A DNA stretch of 64,000 bases from an uncultured Brachyspira sp. Lineage in GTDB: Bacteria > Spirochaetota > Brachyspiria > Brachyspirales > Brachyspiraceae. Positions 27,370 through 35,729 of this stretch are shown piece by piece (positions within the stretch are counted from its first letter, which is position 1; every line of letters begins with the position of its first letter). Made by a program: the position numbers and the translations under genes. The stretch covers positions 1 to 64,000 of the forward strand of contig NZ_CALXKQ010000010.1 of assembly GCF_944388875.1 (NCBI RefSeq), written 5' to 3'. The notes under the pieces are model-generated. The model saw only the letters and a list, made by a program, of their open reading frames with translations. It made no database searches and was not told where the DNA came from.

Positions 27370-28968
27370 TTATTTATTAGCAGATTCTATACTATTTGAA
27401 ATATTAACAAGTATTGTTTTCATATTTTTATAAAGTTTAGCATCATCATTATATTTTAAGAACTCTACTCTCTTTTCATCTATCTCTTTAACATTTGATA
27501 GATATGTATTGAAATATTCATCTATAAATTTATTATATTTAGCTATTACATTCTCTTCTTCGTATGCTTTAATTACTTTTTTTGATAAAGTTTTTTTCCA
27601 ATTTCCTGAAAATGACATGAATCCTGAAAGTATAAAAACTATACTAGGAAGGAAGTATAAAGATGCTCCTATAATATTTAATTGTCTAGTTCCGCTTGTT
27701 TTAAGCAAATTAAATGATGGTACAGCACCGATTGAAGCAGCTGCCAAAAATATTTTATTGGAATTTTTTGTAATCAAGGCTTTATTAACATCTTTATTGC
27801 TGAAATCTTCTTCAACTATAGCCAATGTATTATATAATCTAGTATCCAATTCTAAATTGATGCTATTGCATAATACTTTTATATCATCCTTTTTTCTATA
27901 CACATTATGATCATCAATAGCTTTAATTATATTATCTATATTTAAAGTATTTTTATATATTTCATTAAAGATTTCTTTAGCATTATTCTTTAATTTTTGT
28001 ATATTAGTATCTATTTTGTCATTATCCTGAAATTCATTTTTATCATTAATAATCTCAATATAGAAATTAATATTAGTGAGAAGTCTATGATAATAAGTGT
28101 ATTTAAGGCTATCAACAAATTTACTCTTTATTTCTTTAACAAAATTTGTATTATTAATTGAAAATGGGAAGAATCTGCTTCTTAAATATTTATAATCTAT
28201 CTTGTTTATATTCTCACTTGAAGAGATAAAATTCTTAAGTATTTCAAATTTCTTATCTATAACACCCTCAAGCTCATTTTCATCAAAAATATTTGCTTTT
28301 GAAAATATTATAAATATATTTGAAAAATCATCTACAAAATTAATAAGCCCATTTATATTTGTTACATCTTCCTGTGAAAATGCATTTATATCGCACAAAT
28401 ATATAAACATGTTTTTATTACTGTATTTTTTTGTATCAAGAACATTATCTTTATATTCTGTAATTTTGAATTGTTTAGAATCATCTTGAAGATAATATTC
28501 TTCATTATCAGTATCTTCAGAATATGGATTTGTATCTATATTCTTATCAAAAATAGCATTTATAAAAGATGTTTTTCCAGAGCTGTATCTTCCATAAACG
28601 ATTATATCAAGCGTATCATTAACTTGATTATAAATATCAGACATAAGCTCATTAATCTTTTCGCTATTTTTCTTATCTACCGAATTAATCTCTTCTGATA
28701 TTTTATCGAGTATCTTTTGTACATCGATAAAATTATCATATAAATCCAAACTCTCATTTTCAAATGAATTTTTTCTGTATTTTGTTAATTCATCAATGCT
28801 AAGCCCTGTATTTTCTGCAAGCTTATCTAACAAATCAAGGGTTATATTATTAGCATTCCTTTCAAGTCTGGAAATATAATCCTGACGCACACCCAACATC
28901 TTAGCAAACTGACTCTGAGTCAGCTTCAATATTTTTTCTCTAATATCTTTTAAATTAAAATCAATCAT
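27370..28968 (-). CDS. XRE-type HTH fused to dynamin-like GTPase
   Basis: 532 residues from ATG 28968. Residues 1-65 form a classic XRE/Cro helix-turn-helix (TQSQFAKMLGVRQDYISRLE). A linker helix precedes a P-loop GTPase: IIVYGRYSSGKTSFINAIF (G1) and IFSKANIFDE in the place of the G4 motif. A long helical region follows, and two hydrophobic helices near residues 400-455 look like the membrane-inserting part of bacterial dynamin-like proteins. The start is fixed by a promoter whose start point falls after the upstream in-frame TTG. DNA-binding and membrane-GTPase modules in one chain are unusual. Divergent to the HPr-like/GTPase cluster, it may regulate or act with it (inference). Confidence 0.75.
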   Translation of the reverse strand: MIDFNLKDIREKILKLTQSQFAKMLGVRQDYISRLERNANNITLDLLDKLAENTGLSIDELTKYRKNSFENESLDLYDNFIDVQKILDKISEEINSVDKKNSEKINELMSDIYNQVNDTLDIIVYGRYSSGKTSFINAIFDKNIDTNPYSEDTDNEEYYLQDDSKQFKITEYKDNVLDTKKYSNKNMFIYLCDINAFSQEDVTNINGLINFVDDFSNIFIIFSKANIFDENELEGVIDKKFEILKNFISSSENINKIDYKYLRSRFFPFSINNTNFVKEIKSKFVDSLKYTYYHRLLTNINFYIEIINDKNEFQDNDKIDTNIQKLKNNAKEIFNEIYKNTLNIDNIIKAIDDHNVYRKKDDIKVLCNSINLELDTRLYNTLAIVEEDFSNKDVNKALITKNSNKIFLAAASIGAVPSFNLLKTSGTRQLNIIGASLYFLPSIVFILSGFMSFSGNWKKTLSKKVIKAYEEENVIAKYNKFIDEYFNTYLSNVKEIDEKRVEFLKYNDDAKLYKNMKTILVNISNSIESANK

Positions 28969-29036: not shown

Positions 29037-29341
29037 GATTTTTTATGTAAGATATGTTGTATTATTTACCTATTATTTGTATTTAAAATGAATATAGCAT
29101 TTTTAATTGAATTTTTAAGTTTAAATATTCTAAAATATATAATTCTTTAAATTGATATTATTTACTTATATACAGAATTAATTTATTATACTATTAATAT
29201 ATATAAATATTTTTTAATATACTCTTATTGTATTATTAATTAATAACACATTATCCTATTTTACATTTTTTATATAAATATAATCAAATAAATATTACAA
29301 TTAATAAATGTAGGATATAATTTTAATACCTGCTATGTTAA
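29037..29341. other. Extremely AT-rich divergent intergenic region
   Basis: About 305 bases of almost pure A and T between the promoters of the XRE-GTPase and HPr-like genes. No gene or repeat unit was recognised. Strongly bent or easily melted DNA and binding of the XRE protein are possible but not shown. Confidence 0.5.
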
Positions 29342-29401: not shown

Positions 29402-30538
29402 ATGCTGAATAATGATTTTTCATCTAAAGAATTTATATATATAAATAACACATCAATTATTGCCTCAATTGTAGATTTTATAAAAAACAATATAGAAGAC
29501 AAGGTTGAAATCGGATATAGTATTGATAAAAAAGTAAATGCAAAATCTCTTTTAAAAGTTATGGCTTTATTATCTAATAATAATAACAATATTAATATAT
29601 ATTGCTATGGAAACAAAAAAGAAGATAACCTAAAAACTATAGAAGACTTTTTATATGACAATAATTTATGTTCAATGCCTGAAATAAAAAATATAGAACA
29701 GGAAAGAATAAATAGTTATGATAAAGAATTGGAAGAGGAAATATTATCCGTAACTCCAGATAATAAAAGGAAAAACATAAAATCCAAAATAAATCTTTTA
29801 AAAGAAAAAAGAAGTAAAAAACACGGCAAATACTCTGAAAATCACAATATAATATATATAAAAAATAATAAAAAAATAGAAATAATTAATTTTATTGAAA
29901 ATGATATTACAGAAATGATAAAAAATTTATCTTCATATTATGAAATAAATATTGAATATAATTATATAGAAAATTTAAAAATAGAAATAACAGATGCATT
30001 AAAATCAATTGATATACAATATTTCTATAAAGATATATTTTTTAACTGCCTGCAAAAATACTTTATTGATAAATTTGATAAAATATATATAAAAAAGATA
30101 ATAGATGAAGATTATACAAATGAAATAAAGTATAATACTGAATACATTAATAAAATCATAAAAGAATCAGTTAAAACATTAGACTATATTTTAAAAAACA
30201 AAAGAGAACTCTCATATAATATTTCTAATATATATTTAAATAATTTTAATTATGCAAATATTAAAAGCAGTATTATAAGTATTATAAATAATATATCTGT
30301 AATATATGAATTGGAATATAAATTAATTAATGATGATCTAATATCGTTTGCATCAAAAATAAGCAATTCTATAGGGGAAAACCTTTTATCAGGAATGGGA
30401 AGCAGCGGAAATATATTAATACAAAATATAATAAATTACTTTCAAAAGCAATTTGAATATGCTTATATATCTTCTATAATTGGAGAAGATTCCCCTATTA
30501 TAGAATATGATTTTAATTATATAAAAAGATTCATATAA
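29402..30538 (+). CDS. HPr-like domain protein lacking the phospho-histidine (copy 1)
   Basis: 378 residues. Residues about 7-90 fit the HPr fold: KEFIYINNTSIIASIVDFI, VNAKSLLKVMALL, then a Gly (YCYGNKKEDN) and a last helix. The catalytic His-Ala-Arg-Pro segment is absent, but Ser in NAKSLLKVM aligns with regulatory Ser46 of HPr, a pattern like Bacillus Crh. The remaining 290 residues are a helical, Lys/Glu/Ile/Asn-rich domain I do not recognise. AAGGAAG precedes the ATG. A paralogue lies at 33570, with two GTPase genes between them. Role unknown; a protein-binding or regulatory part in a GTPase system is inferred. Confidence 0.65.
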   Translation: MLNNDFSSKEFIYINNTSIIASIVDFIKNNIEDKVEIGYSIDKKVNAKSLLKVMALLSNNNNNINIYCYGNKKEDNLKTIEDFLYDNNLCSMPEIKNIEQERINSYDKELEEEILSVTPDNKRKNIKSKINLLKEKRSKKHGKYSENHNIIYIKNNKKIEIINFIENDITEMIKNLSSYYEINIEYNYIENLKIEITDALKSIDIQYFYKDIFFNCLQKYFIDKFDKIYIKKIIDEDYTNEIKYNTEYINKIIKESVKTLDYILKNKRELSYNISNIYLNNFNYANIKSSIISIINNISVIYELEYKLINDDLISFASKISNSIGENLLSGMGSSGNILIQNIINYFQKQFEYAYISSIIGEDSPIIEYDFNYIKRFI

Positions 30539-30580
30539 ATTTTACAAAATTATAATTAATATGTTTTTATACATAAAGCA

Positions 30581-30609
30581 TTGACTTTCCATGTTTTTTG
30601 TGATATTAT
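30581..30609 (+). promoter_or_regulatory. Promoter of first GTPase gene
   Basis: TTGACT (30581-30586), 17 bases, TATTAT (30604-30609). An AAGGA ribosome site follows before ATG 30637. Confidence 0.7.
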
Positions 30610-30636
30610 TACTAATAAATATAATAAGGAAAAATT

Positions 30637-31740
30637 ATGGAAAATATTGAAAATTATAATTATGAAGAAGATTTTTATAAGCAATATGAAAAAGAGAAGG
30701 AAAAATATAAAAGACCTAACATTTTAATATGCGGATACACTGGTTCAGGCAAAACTAGTATAATACAGTCATTATTAGGGGAAGATTTAGTTCCTGCTGA
30801 TAAAATAGGAGCAGGTTTGCCTGTAACACAAGATTATGAAATGTATGAAAATGAATTAGTAAGAATATGGGATTCTCAAGGTTTAGAACCTGATAAAGGT
30901 GAATATGAGTTCATAGAGAGAACAAAAAAATTCATAAGCGAAATACAGAACAGACCTAATGTAGATGATCATATTCATATATTTTGGTATGTAGTAAGTG
31001 CAGGAGTTAGTAAAGTTACTCCTACAGATTTAAAAATTATGGAAATATTTCCTAGAGAATCAAGAATAGTAATCATAAGCAAAAAGGATATAGCAAGACA
31101 AAACACAATAAAGGGAATGAAAAATGTTTTAATAAATGGCAATATTCCAGAAAATAAAATAATATGCACAACTGATATAGAAGCAGGAAGAGAAGGAATA
31201 AAAGAATTGTATGAACTTAGTTTAAAAATATTACCAGATGCTTATAAAACAGCATTTGAAGAAGCTCAGCGTATAGATATAGAAAAATCTGTAGAAAAAA
31301 TAAAAGAAAAGAAAGCATCAGCTTTGGGAATTATTGGAACAGCAACTACAGGAGCTGCTCTTGCTGCCGCTAATCCTATACCTCTGTCAGATGCAGCTAT
31401 AATAACCCCTATTCAAATTGCAATGATAGCAGGACTTGCCGCTTTGTATAAACTAAATAAAGAACAATTACAACATTTAGCTTTACCTTTAGTTGCCAGA
31501 ACAGTTGGAGTTATAACAGCAGGCGGTTTAGCTAAATTAATACCTGTGGCTGGAAACATTCTTAATGCAAGTATAGCTGGAGTTATAACAGGTGCTTTAG
31601 GCTGGTTTGTGCAGGATCAATTTGAAAAAATAGCTATTGCTAAAGTGAAAGGGGAAACTCCTCCTATTATAAATTTTGACCCTGAAATATTTATGGCATT
31701 TTTTAAACAATATCAAAAAAATAATAGCAATAATAAATAA
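30637..31740 (+). CDS. GTPase with C-terminal DUF697-like membrane domain
   Basis: 367 residues. The Era/TrmE-like GTPase domain has G1 ICGYTGSGKTSII (about residues 30-42), G3 IWDSQGLE and G4 ISKKD, ending near residue 210. The C-terminal part, ALGIIGTATTGAALAAANPIPLSDA and following Gly/Ala-rich helices, resembles DUF697 found on YcjF-type membrane GTPases. It should sit at the inner membrane. The first 210 residues are nearly identical to those of the GTPase at 32035, but the C-termini are unrelated. The pair is bracketed by two HPr-like genes. Confidence 0.8.
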   Translation: MENIENYNYEEDFYKQYEKEKEKYKRPNILICGYTGSGKTSIIQSLLGEDLVPADKIGAGLPVTQDYEMYENELVRIWDSQGLEPDKGEYEFIERTKKFISEIQNRPNVDDHIHIFWYVVSAGVSKVTPTDLKIMEIFPRESRIVIISKKDIARQNTIKGMKNVLINGNIPENKIICTTDIEAGREGIKELYELSLKILPDAYKTAFEEAQRIDIEKSVEKIKEKKASALGIIGTATTGAALAAANPIPLSDAAIITPIQIAMIAGLAALYKLNKEQLQHLALPLVARTVGVITAGGLAKLIPVAGNILNASIAGVITGALGWFVQDQFEKIAIAKVKGETPPIINFDPEIFMAFFKQYQKNNSNNK

Positions 31741-31791
31741 GAATATTCTGTTAAGATAATAATTAAGTCAGCATAACAGAATATTCTTATT
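31736..31791 (+). terminator. Hairpin overlapping the GTPase stop codon
   Basis: A perfect 18-base stem (31736-31753 with 31774-31791) has a 20-base loop. The left arm includes the last bases of the TAA stop; a short T/A stretch follows. Confidence 0.6.
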
Positions 31792-31799
31792 TATTAAAG

Positions 31800-32020
31800 A
31801 CATAGTATTGAAAATGACTTTATTAATAAATTTGAAAATTGCAAACAAATTATAAAAATAAAATTTGATAGTATAGTGCAGAAAAAATTGAAAAAAATAA
31901 TTGAGGGCTGCTGCTAAAATTAGAATGGAAACTTCTCTTATTGTAAATTTAGATAAAAGTAGAATTTATTTAAATTTAAAAACAATACCAAAAATAATAA
32001 ACTATTATATATTATAAAAA
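31800..32020 (+). pseudogene. Possible gene remnant between the two GTPase genes
   Basis: The 294-base gap between GTPase genes is less AT-extreme than other gaps. It can be read as about 30 residues (FINKFENCKQIIKIKF...) followed, after one frame change near 31910, by AAAKIRMETSLIVNLDKS and on to a stop near 32018. This looks like a decayed coding fragment, but I cannot assign a family. Could also be chance. Confidence 0.2.
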
Positions 32021-32034
32021 AGGGGTAATTTTTA

Positions 32035-33546
32035 ATGAGTGAGAATTTTGGTTTTAATTCAAGTTCTTTCTATGTAGGTTCAAAAAATATCCTTAGCGGA
32101 ATATCTTCAGATAAAATAAATAAAAATAATGCAGATGTTTATTCATACATAGAAAAATTGAAAAAAAATATAAAGAAACCAAATATTTTAATATGCGGAT
32201 ACACTGGTTCAGGTAAAACTAGTATAATACAGTCATTATTAGGAAAAGATTTAGTTCCTGCTGATAAAATAGGAGCAGGTTTGCCTATAACACAAGATTA
32301 TGAAATGTATGAAAATGAATTAGTTAGAATATGGGATTCTAAAGGTTTAGAACCTGATAAAGGTGAAGATGAGTTTATAGAAAGAACAAAAGAGTTTATT
32401 AGAAAAATTCAGGATAATTCTATAAATGCAGATGATCATATTCATGTATTTTGGTATGTAGTAAGTGCAGGAATTTCTAAAGTTACTCCTACAGATTTAA
32501 AAATTATGGAAATATTTCCTAAAGAAGCAAAAATAGCGATTATAAGCAAAAAGGATATAGCAAGACAAAACATAATAAATGGAATGAAAGATGTTTTAAT
32601 AAATAAAGGCGACATTCCAGAAAATAAAATAATATGTACAACTGATATAGAAGCAGGAAGAGAAGGCATAAAAGAATTATACGAACTTACTTTAAAAATA
32701 TTACCAGATGCTTATAAAACAGCATTTGAAGAAGCTCAGCGTATAGATATAGAAAATAAATTAAAGTTAATAGAATCTAAAGAAAAAGATGCTGACAATA
32801 TTATTTTACAAGCAGTAAATGAATCAAAAACTGATAATGTATCAGCTATATATGATACAAATATAGATATTGTTTCACGGCTATCTTCTTTATATATGAT
32901 AGATAAAAAATATATTGAGAATATTATATATTCACTTAGTTATATATCTTTATTTTCATTGCAGCCTTCAGGATTTTTTTCTATTTTTGCTGGGGATGAA
33001 AAATTTATAGACTCTATGATCTTTACTTCTGGCTTTGGACATTATGTAAAACATGAAATAAAAAGACTGTCTATAGCAATTGCAAAAGATGATAATATAG
33101 AATTAATTGAAACGGATAATGATAATATATTTGAAGATTATTTAAATAAATACAAAGAAAATATAAAATGCAGTAATGTTGATGATTTGGTAAAAAAAAT
33201 ATCAAATAATGAAAATTTGATATTTATGCATGGTGATTTAGCAAAAGATATATATAAAATCAAAACTTTAAAAAATAATTTATGGGCTATACTTATATCT
33301 AGTCTTGCACTTATTATTCCAGCCCTTCTTATGCCTATGGTAAACATAGTAGTTGGGGGCATACTTGGAGTTGGTATTGCAGCTGCTTTAGGAGTTAGGG
33401 GCATAAATGTTTTAATACTTATAATAAAGGCTGGAACTTTATTATTTGGAGGAGGTATTTCAGGGGCAAAAAAAGTTCTTGAAATTTTGAGAAATAAATA
33501 TGTTATTATATTAGATAAACAAAATAGTTTATTGATAAGAAAATAA
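32035..33546 (+). CDS. GTPase with divergent C-terminal membrane domain
   Basis: 503 residues. Residues 50-255 repeat the GTPase domain of the gene at 30637 almost word for word (ICGYTGSGKTSIIQSLLG, IWDSKGLE, ISKKD), up to EEAQRIDIE, after which similarity stops. The new C-terminal half has a helical region, then two or three hydrophobic helices (WAILISSLALIIPALLMP, IVVGGILGVGIAAALGV, GTLLFGGGISG) and a short basic tail. An extra 50-residue N-terminus is Ser/Asn-rich. AGGGG precedes the ATG. The mosaic structure suggests duplication with domain swap. Membrane GTPase of unknown cargo. Confidence 0.75.
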   Translation: MSENFGFNSSSFYVGSKNILSGISSDKINKNNADVYSYIEKLKKNIKKPNILICGYTGSGKTSIIQSLLGKDLVPADKIGAGLPITQDYEMYENELVRIWDSKGLEPDKGEDEFIERTKEFIRKIQDNSINADDHIHVFWYVVSAGISKVTPTDLKIMEIFPKEAKIAIISKKDIARQNIINGMKDVLINKGDIPENKIICTTDIEAGREGIKELYELTLKILPDAYKTAFEEAQRIDIENKLKLIESKEKDADNIILQAVNESKTDNVSAIYDTNIDIVSRLSSLYMIDKKYIENIIYSLSYISLFSLQPSGFFSIFAGDEKFIDSMIFTSGFGHYVKHEIKRLSIAIAKDDNIELIETDNDNIFEDYLNKYKENIKCSNVDDLVKKISNNENLIFMHGDLAKDIYKIKTLKNNLWAILISSLALIIPALLMPMVNIVVGGILGVGIAAALGVRGINVLILIIKAGTLLFGGGISGAKKVLEILRNKYVIILDKQNSLLIRK

Positions 33547-33569
33547 TCATTATTTATAAGGGTAAATCT

Positions 33570-34736
33570 ATGGAAGAGTTTATATCTAAAGAATTTGAAT
33601 GCAGGAACCGTTCTGCCTCTGATAATAAAGTAACTAATTCTATTGTTGATTTTTTAAGAACTATAGATGACAAAATAGAAATAGAAAATAAAAACGGTAA
33701 AAGAGTTAATGCTAAATCTTTTGTTAAAATGATGGGGCTTGGTTTAGAATACGGATATAAATTTACATTGTATGTTTATGGAAATGACAGAGAACATAAT
33801 TTAAAAAGGATTGAGGAAGTATTAGAAAAGAAAGAGTTTTATAGTTTAGAAAAAATAGAAGAATTAGAAAAAAAAGAACTTCTAGAAGAAAATAAATTAT
33901 TAGAAGAAGAAATACTGCATTTAACACCTGAAGATAAAAAAGAAGCTGTAAAAAATGATATAGAAAACAAAATAAAGCTATTAAAAGAAAAAAGGGATAC
34001 TATTCATTTAGAGCCTTTGAATTTAGACAGTAATATTATATACATAAAAAATAATGATAAAACTGCAATTATTGATGTTATTAATAATAATATATGCAAT
34101 GCTGTAAAAAAACTTTCCTCTCATTATGAAATACCTATAAATGAAAATGATTTAGAGAATTTTTTATCTCAATTAATAAATGTTGTTAAAGAAAAAGAGA
34201 TGAAATACTTTTATATTTATCTATTTTCAAGCAATGTTAAAAAATATTTTTATACTCAATTTGATACTATATTTATAAAAAAGATAGCTGGTGCTGAATG
34301 TTTACATAACACTGATTATAATATTGAAATTAATACTGGTTTTGTAGAAGAAGCTATAAAAACTTTAGATTTTGTTCTTGATGATAAGAGAAAGTCGGCT
34401 GATTATTCCATTGATATTTATATGATTGGAAATATTCCTAATTTTACTATGGATATTTTTAGGATTATCAATATTGTCCAAAACATAGGAAAGATTTACG
34501 AAATAAGCTCAAACATTACGGATAATATTATTGAGAGAATAAGGCTAATTTATGATGATAAGAAACAAGCACATGATTTTTCACATGATGAAGAGTATTT
34601 AGATAATATAAAAGCATTTAAAGATTACTTTCAAAAAGAGTTTGAAGAGCTGTATATATCTAATATACTTGAAAATGATGATAAAAAATTAAATATTGAT
34701 TATAAGTATATAAATAGAATTATAAGGAGGTTTTAA
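33570..34736 (+). CDS. HPr-like domain protein lacking the phospho-histidine (copy 2)
   Basis: 388 residues, paralogue of the protein at 29402 in both halves. The HPr-like part is clearer here: NGKRVNAKSFVKMMGLGLEYG closely follows the NGKxVNxKSIMGVMSLGxxxG pattern of true HPr, while the active-site stretch reads NRSASDNKV with no His. A Lys/Glu-rich coiled segment (about residues 85-145) leads into the shared helical domain (HYEIPINENDLENF in the middle). AAGGG precedes the ATG, and the stop overlaps the start of the phosphoesterase gene, so they are co-translated. Confidence 0.65.
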   Translation: MEEFISKEFECRNRSASDNKVTNSIVDFLRTIDDKIEIENKNGKRVNAKSFVKMMGLGLEYGYKFTLYVYGNDREHNLKRIEEVLEKKEFYSLEKIEELEKKELLEENKLLEEEILHLTPEDKKEAVKNDIENKIKLLKEKRDTIHLEPLNLDSNIIYIKNNDKTAIIDVINNNICNAVKKLSSHYEIPINENDLENFLSQLINVVKEKEMKYFYIYLFSSNVKKYFYTQFDTIFIKKIAGAECLHNTDYNIEINTGFVEEAIKTLDFVLDDKRKSADYSIDIYMIGNIPNFTMDIFRIINIVQNIGKIYEISSNITDNIIERIRLIYDDKKQAHDFSHDEEYLDNIKAFKDYFQKEFEELYISNILENDDKKLNIDYKYINRIIRRF

Positions 34737-35431
34737 TGAAGATAGCTGTTATAGGTGATTTGCATGGTAAAAGCTGCTGGAAAAAATTATTAGAAGGAAA
34801 ATTTGATAGCTTTGATAAAATAATATTTATGGGTGATTACAGTGATGACAGCTGGGTTAGATTTAGCGATGAAGAGATAGTAAATAATTTGAATGATGTT
34901 ATAGAGTTCAAAAAAAATCACAATGATAAGGTTGAGCTTTTAATAGGAAACCATGACTTTCAGTATATAGTAGGCTATCCTACTGCAAGCAGATACAGAG
35001 AAACTTATGCTAAAGAAATGCATGAAATATTTAATGATAATGCAGATATATTTAAAACTATACATTTAGAGAATAATCATATATTCACTCATGCAGGCAT
35101 TACAAACGGATGGATAGATTATATAAAAAATAAATATGAAATAAAAAATATAAATATTGATAATATATATGATGCTGTAAATATAGTTTATAAAAACAAT
35201 AAAGAAGACTGCAATATTGCTTCATTTAGAAGAGGAGGAATGAATAGATTTGCAGGCATATTATGGTCAGATACTGAAGATTTGTTTGATGATGCTTGGA
35301 CTGGATATAATCAGGTTGTAGGACATAATAGAATAAAACCATACAGTGCTATTAAAAAAGATAATTATATTATTTATATGAGTGATCATTTTGATACAGA
35401 TCAGAGTAAATTATTAGTGTTAGATATATAA
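34736..35431 (+). CDS. Serine/threonine-phosphatase-like metallophosphoesterase
   Basis: 231 residues. All metallophosphoesterase motifs are present in order: GDLHG (about residue 7), GDYSD, GNHD, THAG and GHNR. The layout fits PPP-type/diadenosine tetraphosphatase-like enzymes. An AAGGAGG site lies in the end of the HPr-like gene, with TAATG stop/start overlap. Since HPr and Crh are regulated by Ser phosphorylation, a phosphatase co-translated with an HPr-like protein that keeps the Ser may act on it. This is inference. Confidence 0.85.
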   Translation: MKIAVIGDLHGKSCWKKLLEGKFDSFDKIIFMGDYSDDSWVRFSDEEIVNNLNDVIEFKKNHNDKVELLIGNHDFQYIVGYPTASRYRETYAKEMHEIFNDNADIFKTIHLENNHIFTHAGITNGWIDYIKNKYEIKNINIDNIYDAVNIVYKNNKEDCNIASFRRGGMNRFAGILWSDTEDLFDDAWTGYNQVVGHNRIKPYSAIKKDNYIIYMSDHFDTDQSKLLVLDI

Positions 35432-35447
35432 TTTTTTAGGAGTTTAT

Positions 35448-35729
35448 ATGTTTCCAGATAAAGCCCCTTTTCACTATAAATGCAGAAACTGCGGATATTT
35501 TTTCACTTCTGATGAAAATCTGCATGCTCCGTCAGGTCTTTCATTTGTTTCATTAGATTTTGATAATAATGCTAAAACAGATGAAAATGGAAATGAAGTA
35601 TATGAAATAAAATCAGATAACAAAAAAGAATCATTATTAAAAAAAATAACTAAAAGATTATTATGTCCAAAATGTCCGAAATGTAATGAACATTCCGTTG
35701 TAAGTGTTAATTATATATGGCATAAATAA
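35448..35729 (+). CDS. Small zinc-ribbon protein
   Basis: 93 residues. Two Cys pairs, CRNCG near residue 12 and CPKC-PKCNE near residue 75, fit a zinc ribbon interrupted by an acidic insert (DFDNNAKTDENGNE). AGGAG precedes the ATG. It lies 16 bases after the phosphoesterase and ends just as the next promoter begins, making it the last gene of that transcript. Function unknown; nucleic-acid or protein binding is possible. Confidence 0.7.
   Translation: MFPDKAPFHYKCRNCGYFFTSDENLHAPSGLSFVSLDFDNNAKTDENGNEVYEIKSDNKKESLLKKITKRLLCPKCPKCNEHSVVSVNYIWHK

What the first reader, a model, noticed from the sequence alone, without database searches (positions are those of the whole stretch)
29402..35729. 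Undescribed-looking cluster: two His-less HPr-like proteins, two GTPases, a phosphatase and a zinc ribbon
Both HPr-like domains keep the Ser46 motif (NAKS) but lost the active-site His, as in Crh, and are fused to a new 250-residue helical domain. They bracket two membrane GTPases; the second is co-translated with a phosphatase that could act on the Ser. The set looks like a dedicated signalling or defence module, not sugar transport.
Basis: partly seen in the sequence, partly recalled or inferred. Interest (0 to 1): 0.75.

Follow-up and report, generated by a model that had tools for sequence, protein, structure and literature searches.

The report
His-less HPr regulator beside membrane GTPases
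Gut spirochaetes of the genus Brachyspira carry a relative of a sugar-transport protein that has lost its working histidine but kept its regulatory serine, is fused to a new helical region and is tied to a phosphatase gene (and in some genomes to membrane GTPases), so it probably reports the cell's energy state to a membrane or envelope process, although nobody has tested it.

Summary
Both N-terminal domains pass the Pfam HPr cut-off. An AlphaFold model (pLDDT 86) superposes on solved HPr (Z 15.7, residues 4-91). His15 is gone and the Ser46 motif (NAKS) is invariant in all 20 copies read. The genome encodes HPr kinase/phosphorylase. The conserved chromosomal unit in 18 of 26 Brachyspira genomes is one HPr-like gene, translationally coupled to the metallophosphatase, then the Cys-pair protein. 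The bracketed arrangement with two DUF697-type GTPases is intact only in the window genome. A G011 scar (26 codons of GTPase 2) and weaker ones elsewhere suggest it is older and eroding. The helical region (coiled coil plus two four-helix repeats) was found only in Brachyspira. The phosphatase also occurs without the HPr-like gene, so it is not dedicated to it. There is no support for defence. Best mechanism, unproven: a Crh-like Ser-phosphorylated switch with a built-in helical output that acts on membrane GTPases or the envelope. Novelty: a new variant of a known kind.

The parts
27370..28968 (-). HTH (XRE) + dynamin-like GTPase with a C-terminal hydrophobic hairpin; divergent neighbour present in exactly the genomes that have the HPr-like gene
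   Evidence: HTH_3 49.6 bits (cut-off 23), P-loop GRYSSGKTS; same 18 of 26 genus genomes; Foldseek best hits are bacterial dynamin-like proteins, (model pLDDT 69); ATG at 28968 conserved
29096..29118 (.). Conserved element AGCATTTTTAATTGAATTTTTAA in the divergent intergenic region; it travels with the HTH-GTPase gene
29402..30538 (+). HPr-like a: HPr domain (no His15, NAKS kept) + coiled coil + two four-helix repeats
   Evidence: PF00381 31.3 bits; present in G000, G002, G016 only; branches outside all b copies
30558..30577 (+). Motif AATATGTTTTTATACATAAA just upstream of a promoter-like site; also upstream of the single HPr-like gene in most relatives
30637..31740 (+). GTPase 1 (TRAFAC GTPase domain + DUF697 C-terminal domain)
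   Evidence: MMR_HSR1 24.9 bits (cut-off 21.9), DUF697 30.7 bits (cut-off 27.7)
32035..33546 (+). GTPase 2 (59% identical to GTPase 1 over the aligned stretch, then a hydrophobic tail)
   Evidence: MMR_HSR1 26.2 bits; scar of its 3' end in G011
33570..34736 (+). HPr-like b: the conserved copy, same architecture (HPr 2-94, coiled coil 93-143, repeat A 165-262, repeat B 292-387)
   Evidence: PF00381 40.4 bits; AF2 model; fold match Z 15.7 to 1ptf
34736..35431 (+). Calcineurin-type metallophosphatase, start overlapping the HPr-like b stop by 1 nt
   Evidence: PF00149 40.3 bits (cut-off 21.5); spacing -1 to +5 nt in 16 of 17 genomes
35448..35729 (+). Small protein with two Cys pairs (putative zinc ribbon), conserved next to the phosphatase
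   Evidence: (no curated family passed)

Best explanation
HPr-like b (and its paralogue a) is a Brachyspira-specific regulatory protein that works like Crh. It arose by duplication of the genus's own HPr and lost the catalytic His, so it cannot carry phosphate for sugar uptake. It kept Ser46, so HPr kinase/phosphorylase can set its phosphorylation according to ATP and metabolite levels. Instead of acting as a free co-regulator of CcpA, it carries its own output: a coiled coil and two tandem four-helix repeats. The most likely target of that output is a membrane GTPase encoded next to it (the DUF697-type pair, or the HTH-dynamin-like protein) or the nearby envelope functions. The coupled metallophosphatase is made with it in fixed proportion and may reset it or a shared target. 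SHOWN: HPr fold, loss of His, invariant Ser motif, presence of HprK, EI and true HPr, operon coupling, co-occurrence with the HTH-GTPase, helical architecture, scars of GTPase 2 in relatives. INFERRED: phosphorylation by HprK, the switch role, the GTPase or envelope target, the phosphatase substrate.
For: HPr profile over cut-off. AF2 pLDDT 86 and Z up to 15.7 to HPr, with the HPr of the HprK/P-HPr complex (1kkl) the top Foldseek hit. NAKS invariant while the His loop is not, with synonymous changes. Tree places the family beside the genus's canonical HPr, support 0.89. HprK in an rpoN-hpf-ptsN-hprK cluster, plus EI and two His-bearing HPr proteins, in the same genome. HPr-b/phosphatase spacing conserved in 17 of 17 genomes within 14 nt. 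HTH-GTPase in exactly the same 18 of 26 genus genomes, retained even where rearrangement has unlinked it. GTPase 2 scar upstream of HPr-b in G011 (SW score 141 against a shuffled maximum of 38) and a weaker one in G017/G018/G024. Repeat B of HPr-a resembles the C-terminal tail of GTPase 1 (SW 65 against 27.8 +/- 4.9, 0 of 500 shuffles).
Against: No phosphorylation or interaction was tested. The DUF697 GTPases are intact in one genome only. The co-occurrence with the HTH-GTPase can be explained by one joint loss of neighbouring genes on the tree. The conserved element next to the HTH-GTPase does not lie upstream of the HPr-like gene where the two are unlinked, so regulation of one by the other is not supported. 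The phosphatase also occurs without any HPr-like gene. Similarity of the repeats to the wider DUF697 family is weak (P about 0.003).
Confidence: 0.42

Rival explanations
1. The Ser motif is a structural left-over: the HPr fold is used only as a protein-binding or dimerising head for the helical region, and no phosphorylation is involved. Operon partners act independently.
For: NAKS also caps helix B in any HPr fold, and other parts of the domain are also conserved. The paralogue a has diverged strongly around it.
Against: The run N-A-K-S is the longest invariant run of the HPr domain and carries synonymous changes. The same genome has HprK.
Confidence: 0.25
2. Chromosomal hot spot: the GTPases are cargo of a mobile, possibly defensive, cassette that happened to land in or next to an ordinary HPr-like/phosphatase operon, with no functional link.
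For: Relatives of GTPase 1 occur on small plasmids of Acinetobacter, Klebsiella and others and in scattered tandem clusters. Different GTPases occupy the corresponding site in G022 (L073). The G011 scar is more alike (93%) than its intact neighbours (74-82%).
Against: Scars of GTPase 2 at the same place in separate lineages and GTPase 1-promoter-like sequence upstream of the single HPr-like gene elsewhere argue for an old arrangement. No PADLOC family fits beyond the generic P-loop.
Confidence: 0.25
3. A dedicated anti-phage module.
For: GTPases and phosphatases occur in some defence systems. Weak LeoA/LeoBC P-loop hits.
Against: Fixed genus-wide chromosomal locus shared by 18 of 26 genomes, with no defence genes in the neighbourhoods read. 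No PADLOC hit for the HPr-like or phosphatase proteins beyond chance level.
Confidence: 0.05

Closest known systems
Crh (catabolite repression HPr) of Bacillus subtilis
   Same: HPr fold without the active His and with Ser46 kept; HprK present in the same genome
   Different: Fused to about 295 residues of helices; coupled to a metallophosphatase; Brachyspira only; CcpA co-regulation untested
HPr of Brachyspira (PtsH beside EI, contig C39)
   Same: Nearest relative by sequence (41% over the domain); shared KIEIEN..GKRVNA.S segment
   Different: Canonical HPr has His15 and stands alone
DUF697-type GTPases (PF05128 + MMR_HSR1)
   Same: GTPase 1 is a member by Pfam cut-offs
   Different: Placed between two HPr-like genes in the window genome; closest relatives lie in tandem GTPase clusters or on plasmids with no HPr-like gene seen
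Bacterial dynamin-like proteins (BDLP, C. jejuni DLP pair, IniA)
   Same: The conserved HTH-GTPase has its best fold matches among them
   Different: It carries an N-terminal XRE HTH and a degenerate G3 motif; model confidence is modest (pLDDT 69)

Membership tests
HPr phosphocarrier (PTS) | HPr fold / PF00381 | tested here: met
   31.3 and 40.4 bits over cut-off 23; Z 15.7 to 1ptf
HPr phosphocarrier (PTS) | Active-site His15 | tested here: not met
   Ser or variable, or loop shortened, in all 20 copies
Crh | HPr-like without His15 but with Ser46 | tested here: met
   NAKS in 20 of 20
Crh | Stand-alone protein of about 85 residues | tested here: not met
   378 and 388 residues with a helical extension
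Crh | Phosphorylation by HprK and co-regulation with CcpA | not testable with these tools
   HprK gene present; no biochemistry
DUF697 (for the helical repeats) | Profile similarity to DUF697 | tested here: inconclusive
   hhalign P 0.003-0.005 for repeat A, above all column-shuffled controls, but below 12% probability
DUF697 GTPase (GTPase 1) | MMR_HSR1 and DUF697 over curated cut-offs | tested here: met
   24.9 and 30.7 bits
Bacterial dynamin-like protein (27370-28968) | Dynamin-type GTPase and helical stalk | tested here: inconclusive
   Dynamin_N 18.5 bits, below cut-off 27; Foldseek E 4.6e-5 to 5oxf with a pLDDT 69 model
Calcineurin-like metallophosphatase | PF00149 profile | tested here: met
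   40.3 bits over cut-off 21.5
Zinc ribbon (35448-35729) | A curated zinc-ribbon profile | tested here: inconclusive
   No model over its cut-off; two Cys pairs present in the copies read
Known anti-phage defence systems (PADLOC 2.0.0) | Match of module proteins to a defence family beyond the P-loop or HTH | tested here: not met
   Only P-loop, HTH-level and chance-level hits

The most novel reading that the evidence does not exclude
A lineage-specific signalling module in which HPr kinase/phosphorylase, through a His-less HPr domain fused to tandem helical repeats, controls membrane-remodelling GTPases, and so couples energy state directly to the membrane or envelope without the PTS transporters or CcpA.
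Probability: 0.25. Interest if true: 0.78.

Novelty: new variant of a known kind. Interest (0 to 1): 0.5.

Why it matters
Crh is the textbook His-less HPr, and its only well-known output is a shared transcription factor. An HPr-like protein with a built-in output domain, outside Firmicutes, would show a second way for HprK signalling to be wired. It would give a testable target for HprK in spirochaetes, which include the swine dysentery agents. It also names two Brachyspira-restricted protein families (the HPr-repeat fusion and the HTH-dynamin-like GTPase) that are found in the same genomes.

Tried and rejected
1) Helical region as tandem DUF697: the internal duplication is supported (A against B hhalign score 32.3, column-shuffled maximum 22.2), and repeat B of HPr-a resembles the GTPase 1 tail, but the wide DUF697 profile gives only weak scores; not claimed. 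2) HTH-GTPase as regulator of the HPr-like operon through a shared operator: the conserved element follows the HTH-GTPase gene, not the HPr-like gene, after rearrangement. 3) Phosphatase dedicated to the HPr-like protein: rejected as the only role, because it is present without it. 4) Solved folds for the helical part: the only profile hit was E 0.26, and structure lists were filled by the HPr domain; the part was not folded alone, so no statement about a new fold is made. 5) Scar candidates in G016 and the G009 group did not clearly exceed dinucleotide shuffles. 6) Literature: no paper found on HPr or HprK function in Brachyspira.

Full report
WHAT IS THERE. The window lies on contig C10 of a 3.1-Mb genome. 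Loci found by the helical region are all named Brachyspira. Six ORFs sit at the stated coordinates: 29402-30538, 30637-31740, 32035-33546, 33570-34736, 34736-35431 and 35448-35729. The two outer long proteins (378 and 388 aa, 38% identical) start with an HPr domain: PF00381 31.3 and 40.4 bits, cut-off 23. A model of the second protein made with 13 relatives has mean pLDDT 86. Its residues 4-91 superpose on HPr of E. faecalis (1ptf, Z 15.7, rmsd 1.4); the first Foldseek hit is HPr from the HprK/P-HPr crystal.

HIS LOST, SER KEPT. In alignment with the genus's true HPr (L001), His15 falls on Ser17 of HPr-b, the loop varies among orthologues and it is shortened in the a copies. The Ser46 motif reads NAKS in 20 of 20 copies, with synonymous changes at Ala, Lys and Ser. 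It is the longest invariant run in the domain. The genome encodes HPr kinase/phosphorylase (PF07475 E 1.8e-64) in an rpoN-hpf-ptsN-hprK cluster, EI next to HPr, and a second His-bearing HPr. The HPr-like domains branch beside the canonical HPr of the genus (support 0.89), so they probably arose from it.

THE HELICAL REGION. Residues 93-143 are a coiled coil. Residues 165-262 and 292-387 are two four-helix repeats of the same layout. The two repeats match each other with an hhalign score of 32.3 against a shuffled maximum of 22.2. A profile of the region found it in 18 of 26 Brachyspira genomes and in none of 366 other genomes of the phylum. A pattern scan of 84,980 species returned Brachyspira only. 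Repeat B of HPr-a resembles the C-terminal tail of GTPase 1 (SW 65 against 27.8 +/- 4.9, 0 of 500 shuffles), and a merged repeat profile scores 28.5 against it (shuffled maximum 13.4). Against the whole DUF697 family the signal is weak. I treat shared ancestry as possible, not shown.

NEIGHBOURHOODS. In 17 relatives the fixed unit is: AsmA-like gene and lipoprotein, HTH-GTPase facing the other way, HPr-like gene (one, or two in tandem), phosphatase, Cys-pair protein, polysaccharide deacetylase and a lysA-type decarboxylase (one contig is short, and the HTH-GTPase is unlinked in three). Two HPr-like genes occur only in G000, G002 and G016. The two DUF697 GTPases are intact only in G000. HPr-b and phosphatase are separated by -1 to +5 nt in 16 of 17 genomes and by 14 nt in the last.

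BUT IT IS PROBABLY OLD. G011 has one HPr-like gene, and directly upstream of it the last 26 codons of GTPase 2 (105 bp at 92%, E 1.7e-39; SW 141, shuffled maximum 38). G017, G018 and G024 keep a shorter piece (48-50, shuffled maximum 38-43, 0 of 300). In the G009 group the single HPr-like gene is preceded by sequence like the GTPase 1 promoter region (window 30556-30649) with the motif AATATGTTTTTATACATAAC. The a copies branch outside all b copies under midpoint rooting. The simplest reading is an ancestral a - GTPase 1 - GTPase 2 - b array that lost members by deletion. The high identity of the G011 scar (93%, against 74-82% for intact neighbours) leaves room for exchange of the cassette between species, or for constraint because this stretch may hold the HPr-b promoter. 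Relatives of GTPase 1 are mobile elsewhere: small plasmids of Acinetobacter and Klebsiella and tandem GTPase clusters, including four on contig C3 of this genome.

THE HTH-GTPASE. The divergent gene 27370-28968 encodes an XRE HTH (49.6 bits) plus a P-loop GTPase with a hydrophobic hairpin. Its model (pLDDT 69) has bacterial dynamin-like proteins as best fold matches (5oxf, 2j69, 6j72). It is present in exactly the 18 genomes with the HPr-like gene and absent from the other 8; outside the genus only the HTH part matches. In G017, G018 and G024 the two genes are apart yet both kept. One joint loss on the LysA tree would explain the pattern, so this is suggestive only. A conserved element near 29096 follows the HTH-GTPase gene and not the HPr-like gene, so I do not claim that it regulates the HPr-like operon.

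THE PHOSPHATASE. It passes PF00149 and has weak matches to PPP-type and ApaH enzymes. It is in 24 of 25 Brachyspira genomes searched, including six without the HPr-like gene, where it lies in other contexts. In G022 it follows two GTPases of the same broad family, downstream of the same AsmA-like and lipoprotein genes (L073). It therefore has a role that does not need the HPr-like protein.

MECHANISM. The most likely scheme is a Crh-like switch with its own output. HprK phosphorylates Ser50 (Ser46 of HPr) under good energy supply, the helical repeats change partner, and the partner is a membrane GTPase or an envelope process. The phosphatase may reset it or act on the same target. Only the anatomy and the genome context are shown; phosphorylation, partner and phosphatase substrate are inferred. 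It works like Crh but is not filed as Crh, because Crh is a stand-alone domain.

VERDICT. Observation confirmed, interpretation partly supported. Defence is not supported: PADLOC gives only generic P-loop and HTH hits and the locus is fixed in the genus.

Noticed in passing
L072:8099-13791 (G000 contig C3): Four tandem GTPase genes on the minus strand, two of them with two GTPase domains in one chain; same broad family as GTPase 1 and 2.
   Followed up: partly
L073:8154-12565 (G022): Two GTPases (609 and 369 aa), an unknown 139-aa gene and the phosphatase occupy the place downstream of the AsmA-like and lipoprotein genes where other species have the HTH-GTPase and HPr-like genes.
   Followed up: partly
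29096-29118 and orthologous places: Strongly conserved AT-rich element (AGCATTTTTAATNNAATTTTTRA) in all 17 upstream regions of the HTH-GTPase read; kept with that gene after rearrangement. Could be an autoregulatory operator or a leader element.
   Followed up: partly
L136:2195-3298: A DUF697-type GTPase stands next to genes that read like Cas2 and a type III (Cmr-like) CRISPR operon in another spirochaete; not checked with profiles.
   Followed up: no
L076:662-1144 (G024): A stand-alone 160-aa membrane protein related to the C-terminal tail of GTPase 2 (28% identity).
   Followed up: no
L135:8843-9112, L138:5258-5500, L133:3464-3676: Small Cys-pair (zinc-ribbon-like) genes lie near DUF697-type GTPases in three other spirochaetes, recalling the one at 35448-35729; similarity not tested.
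   Followed up: no
L039, L040, L041 HPr-like genes: The helical part groups with G017/G018 while the HPr part branches separately, which hints at recombination within the gene between species.
   Followed up: no
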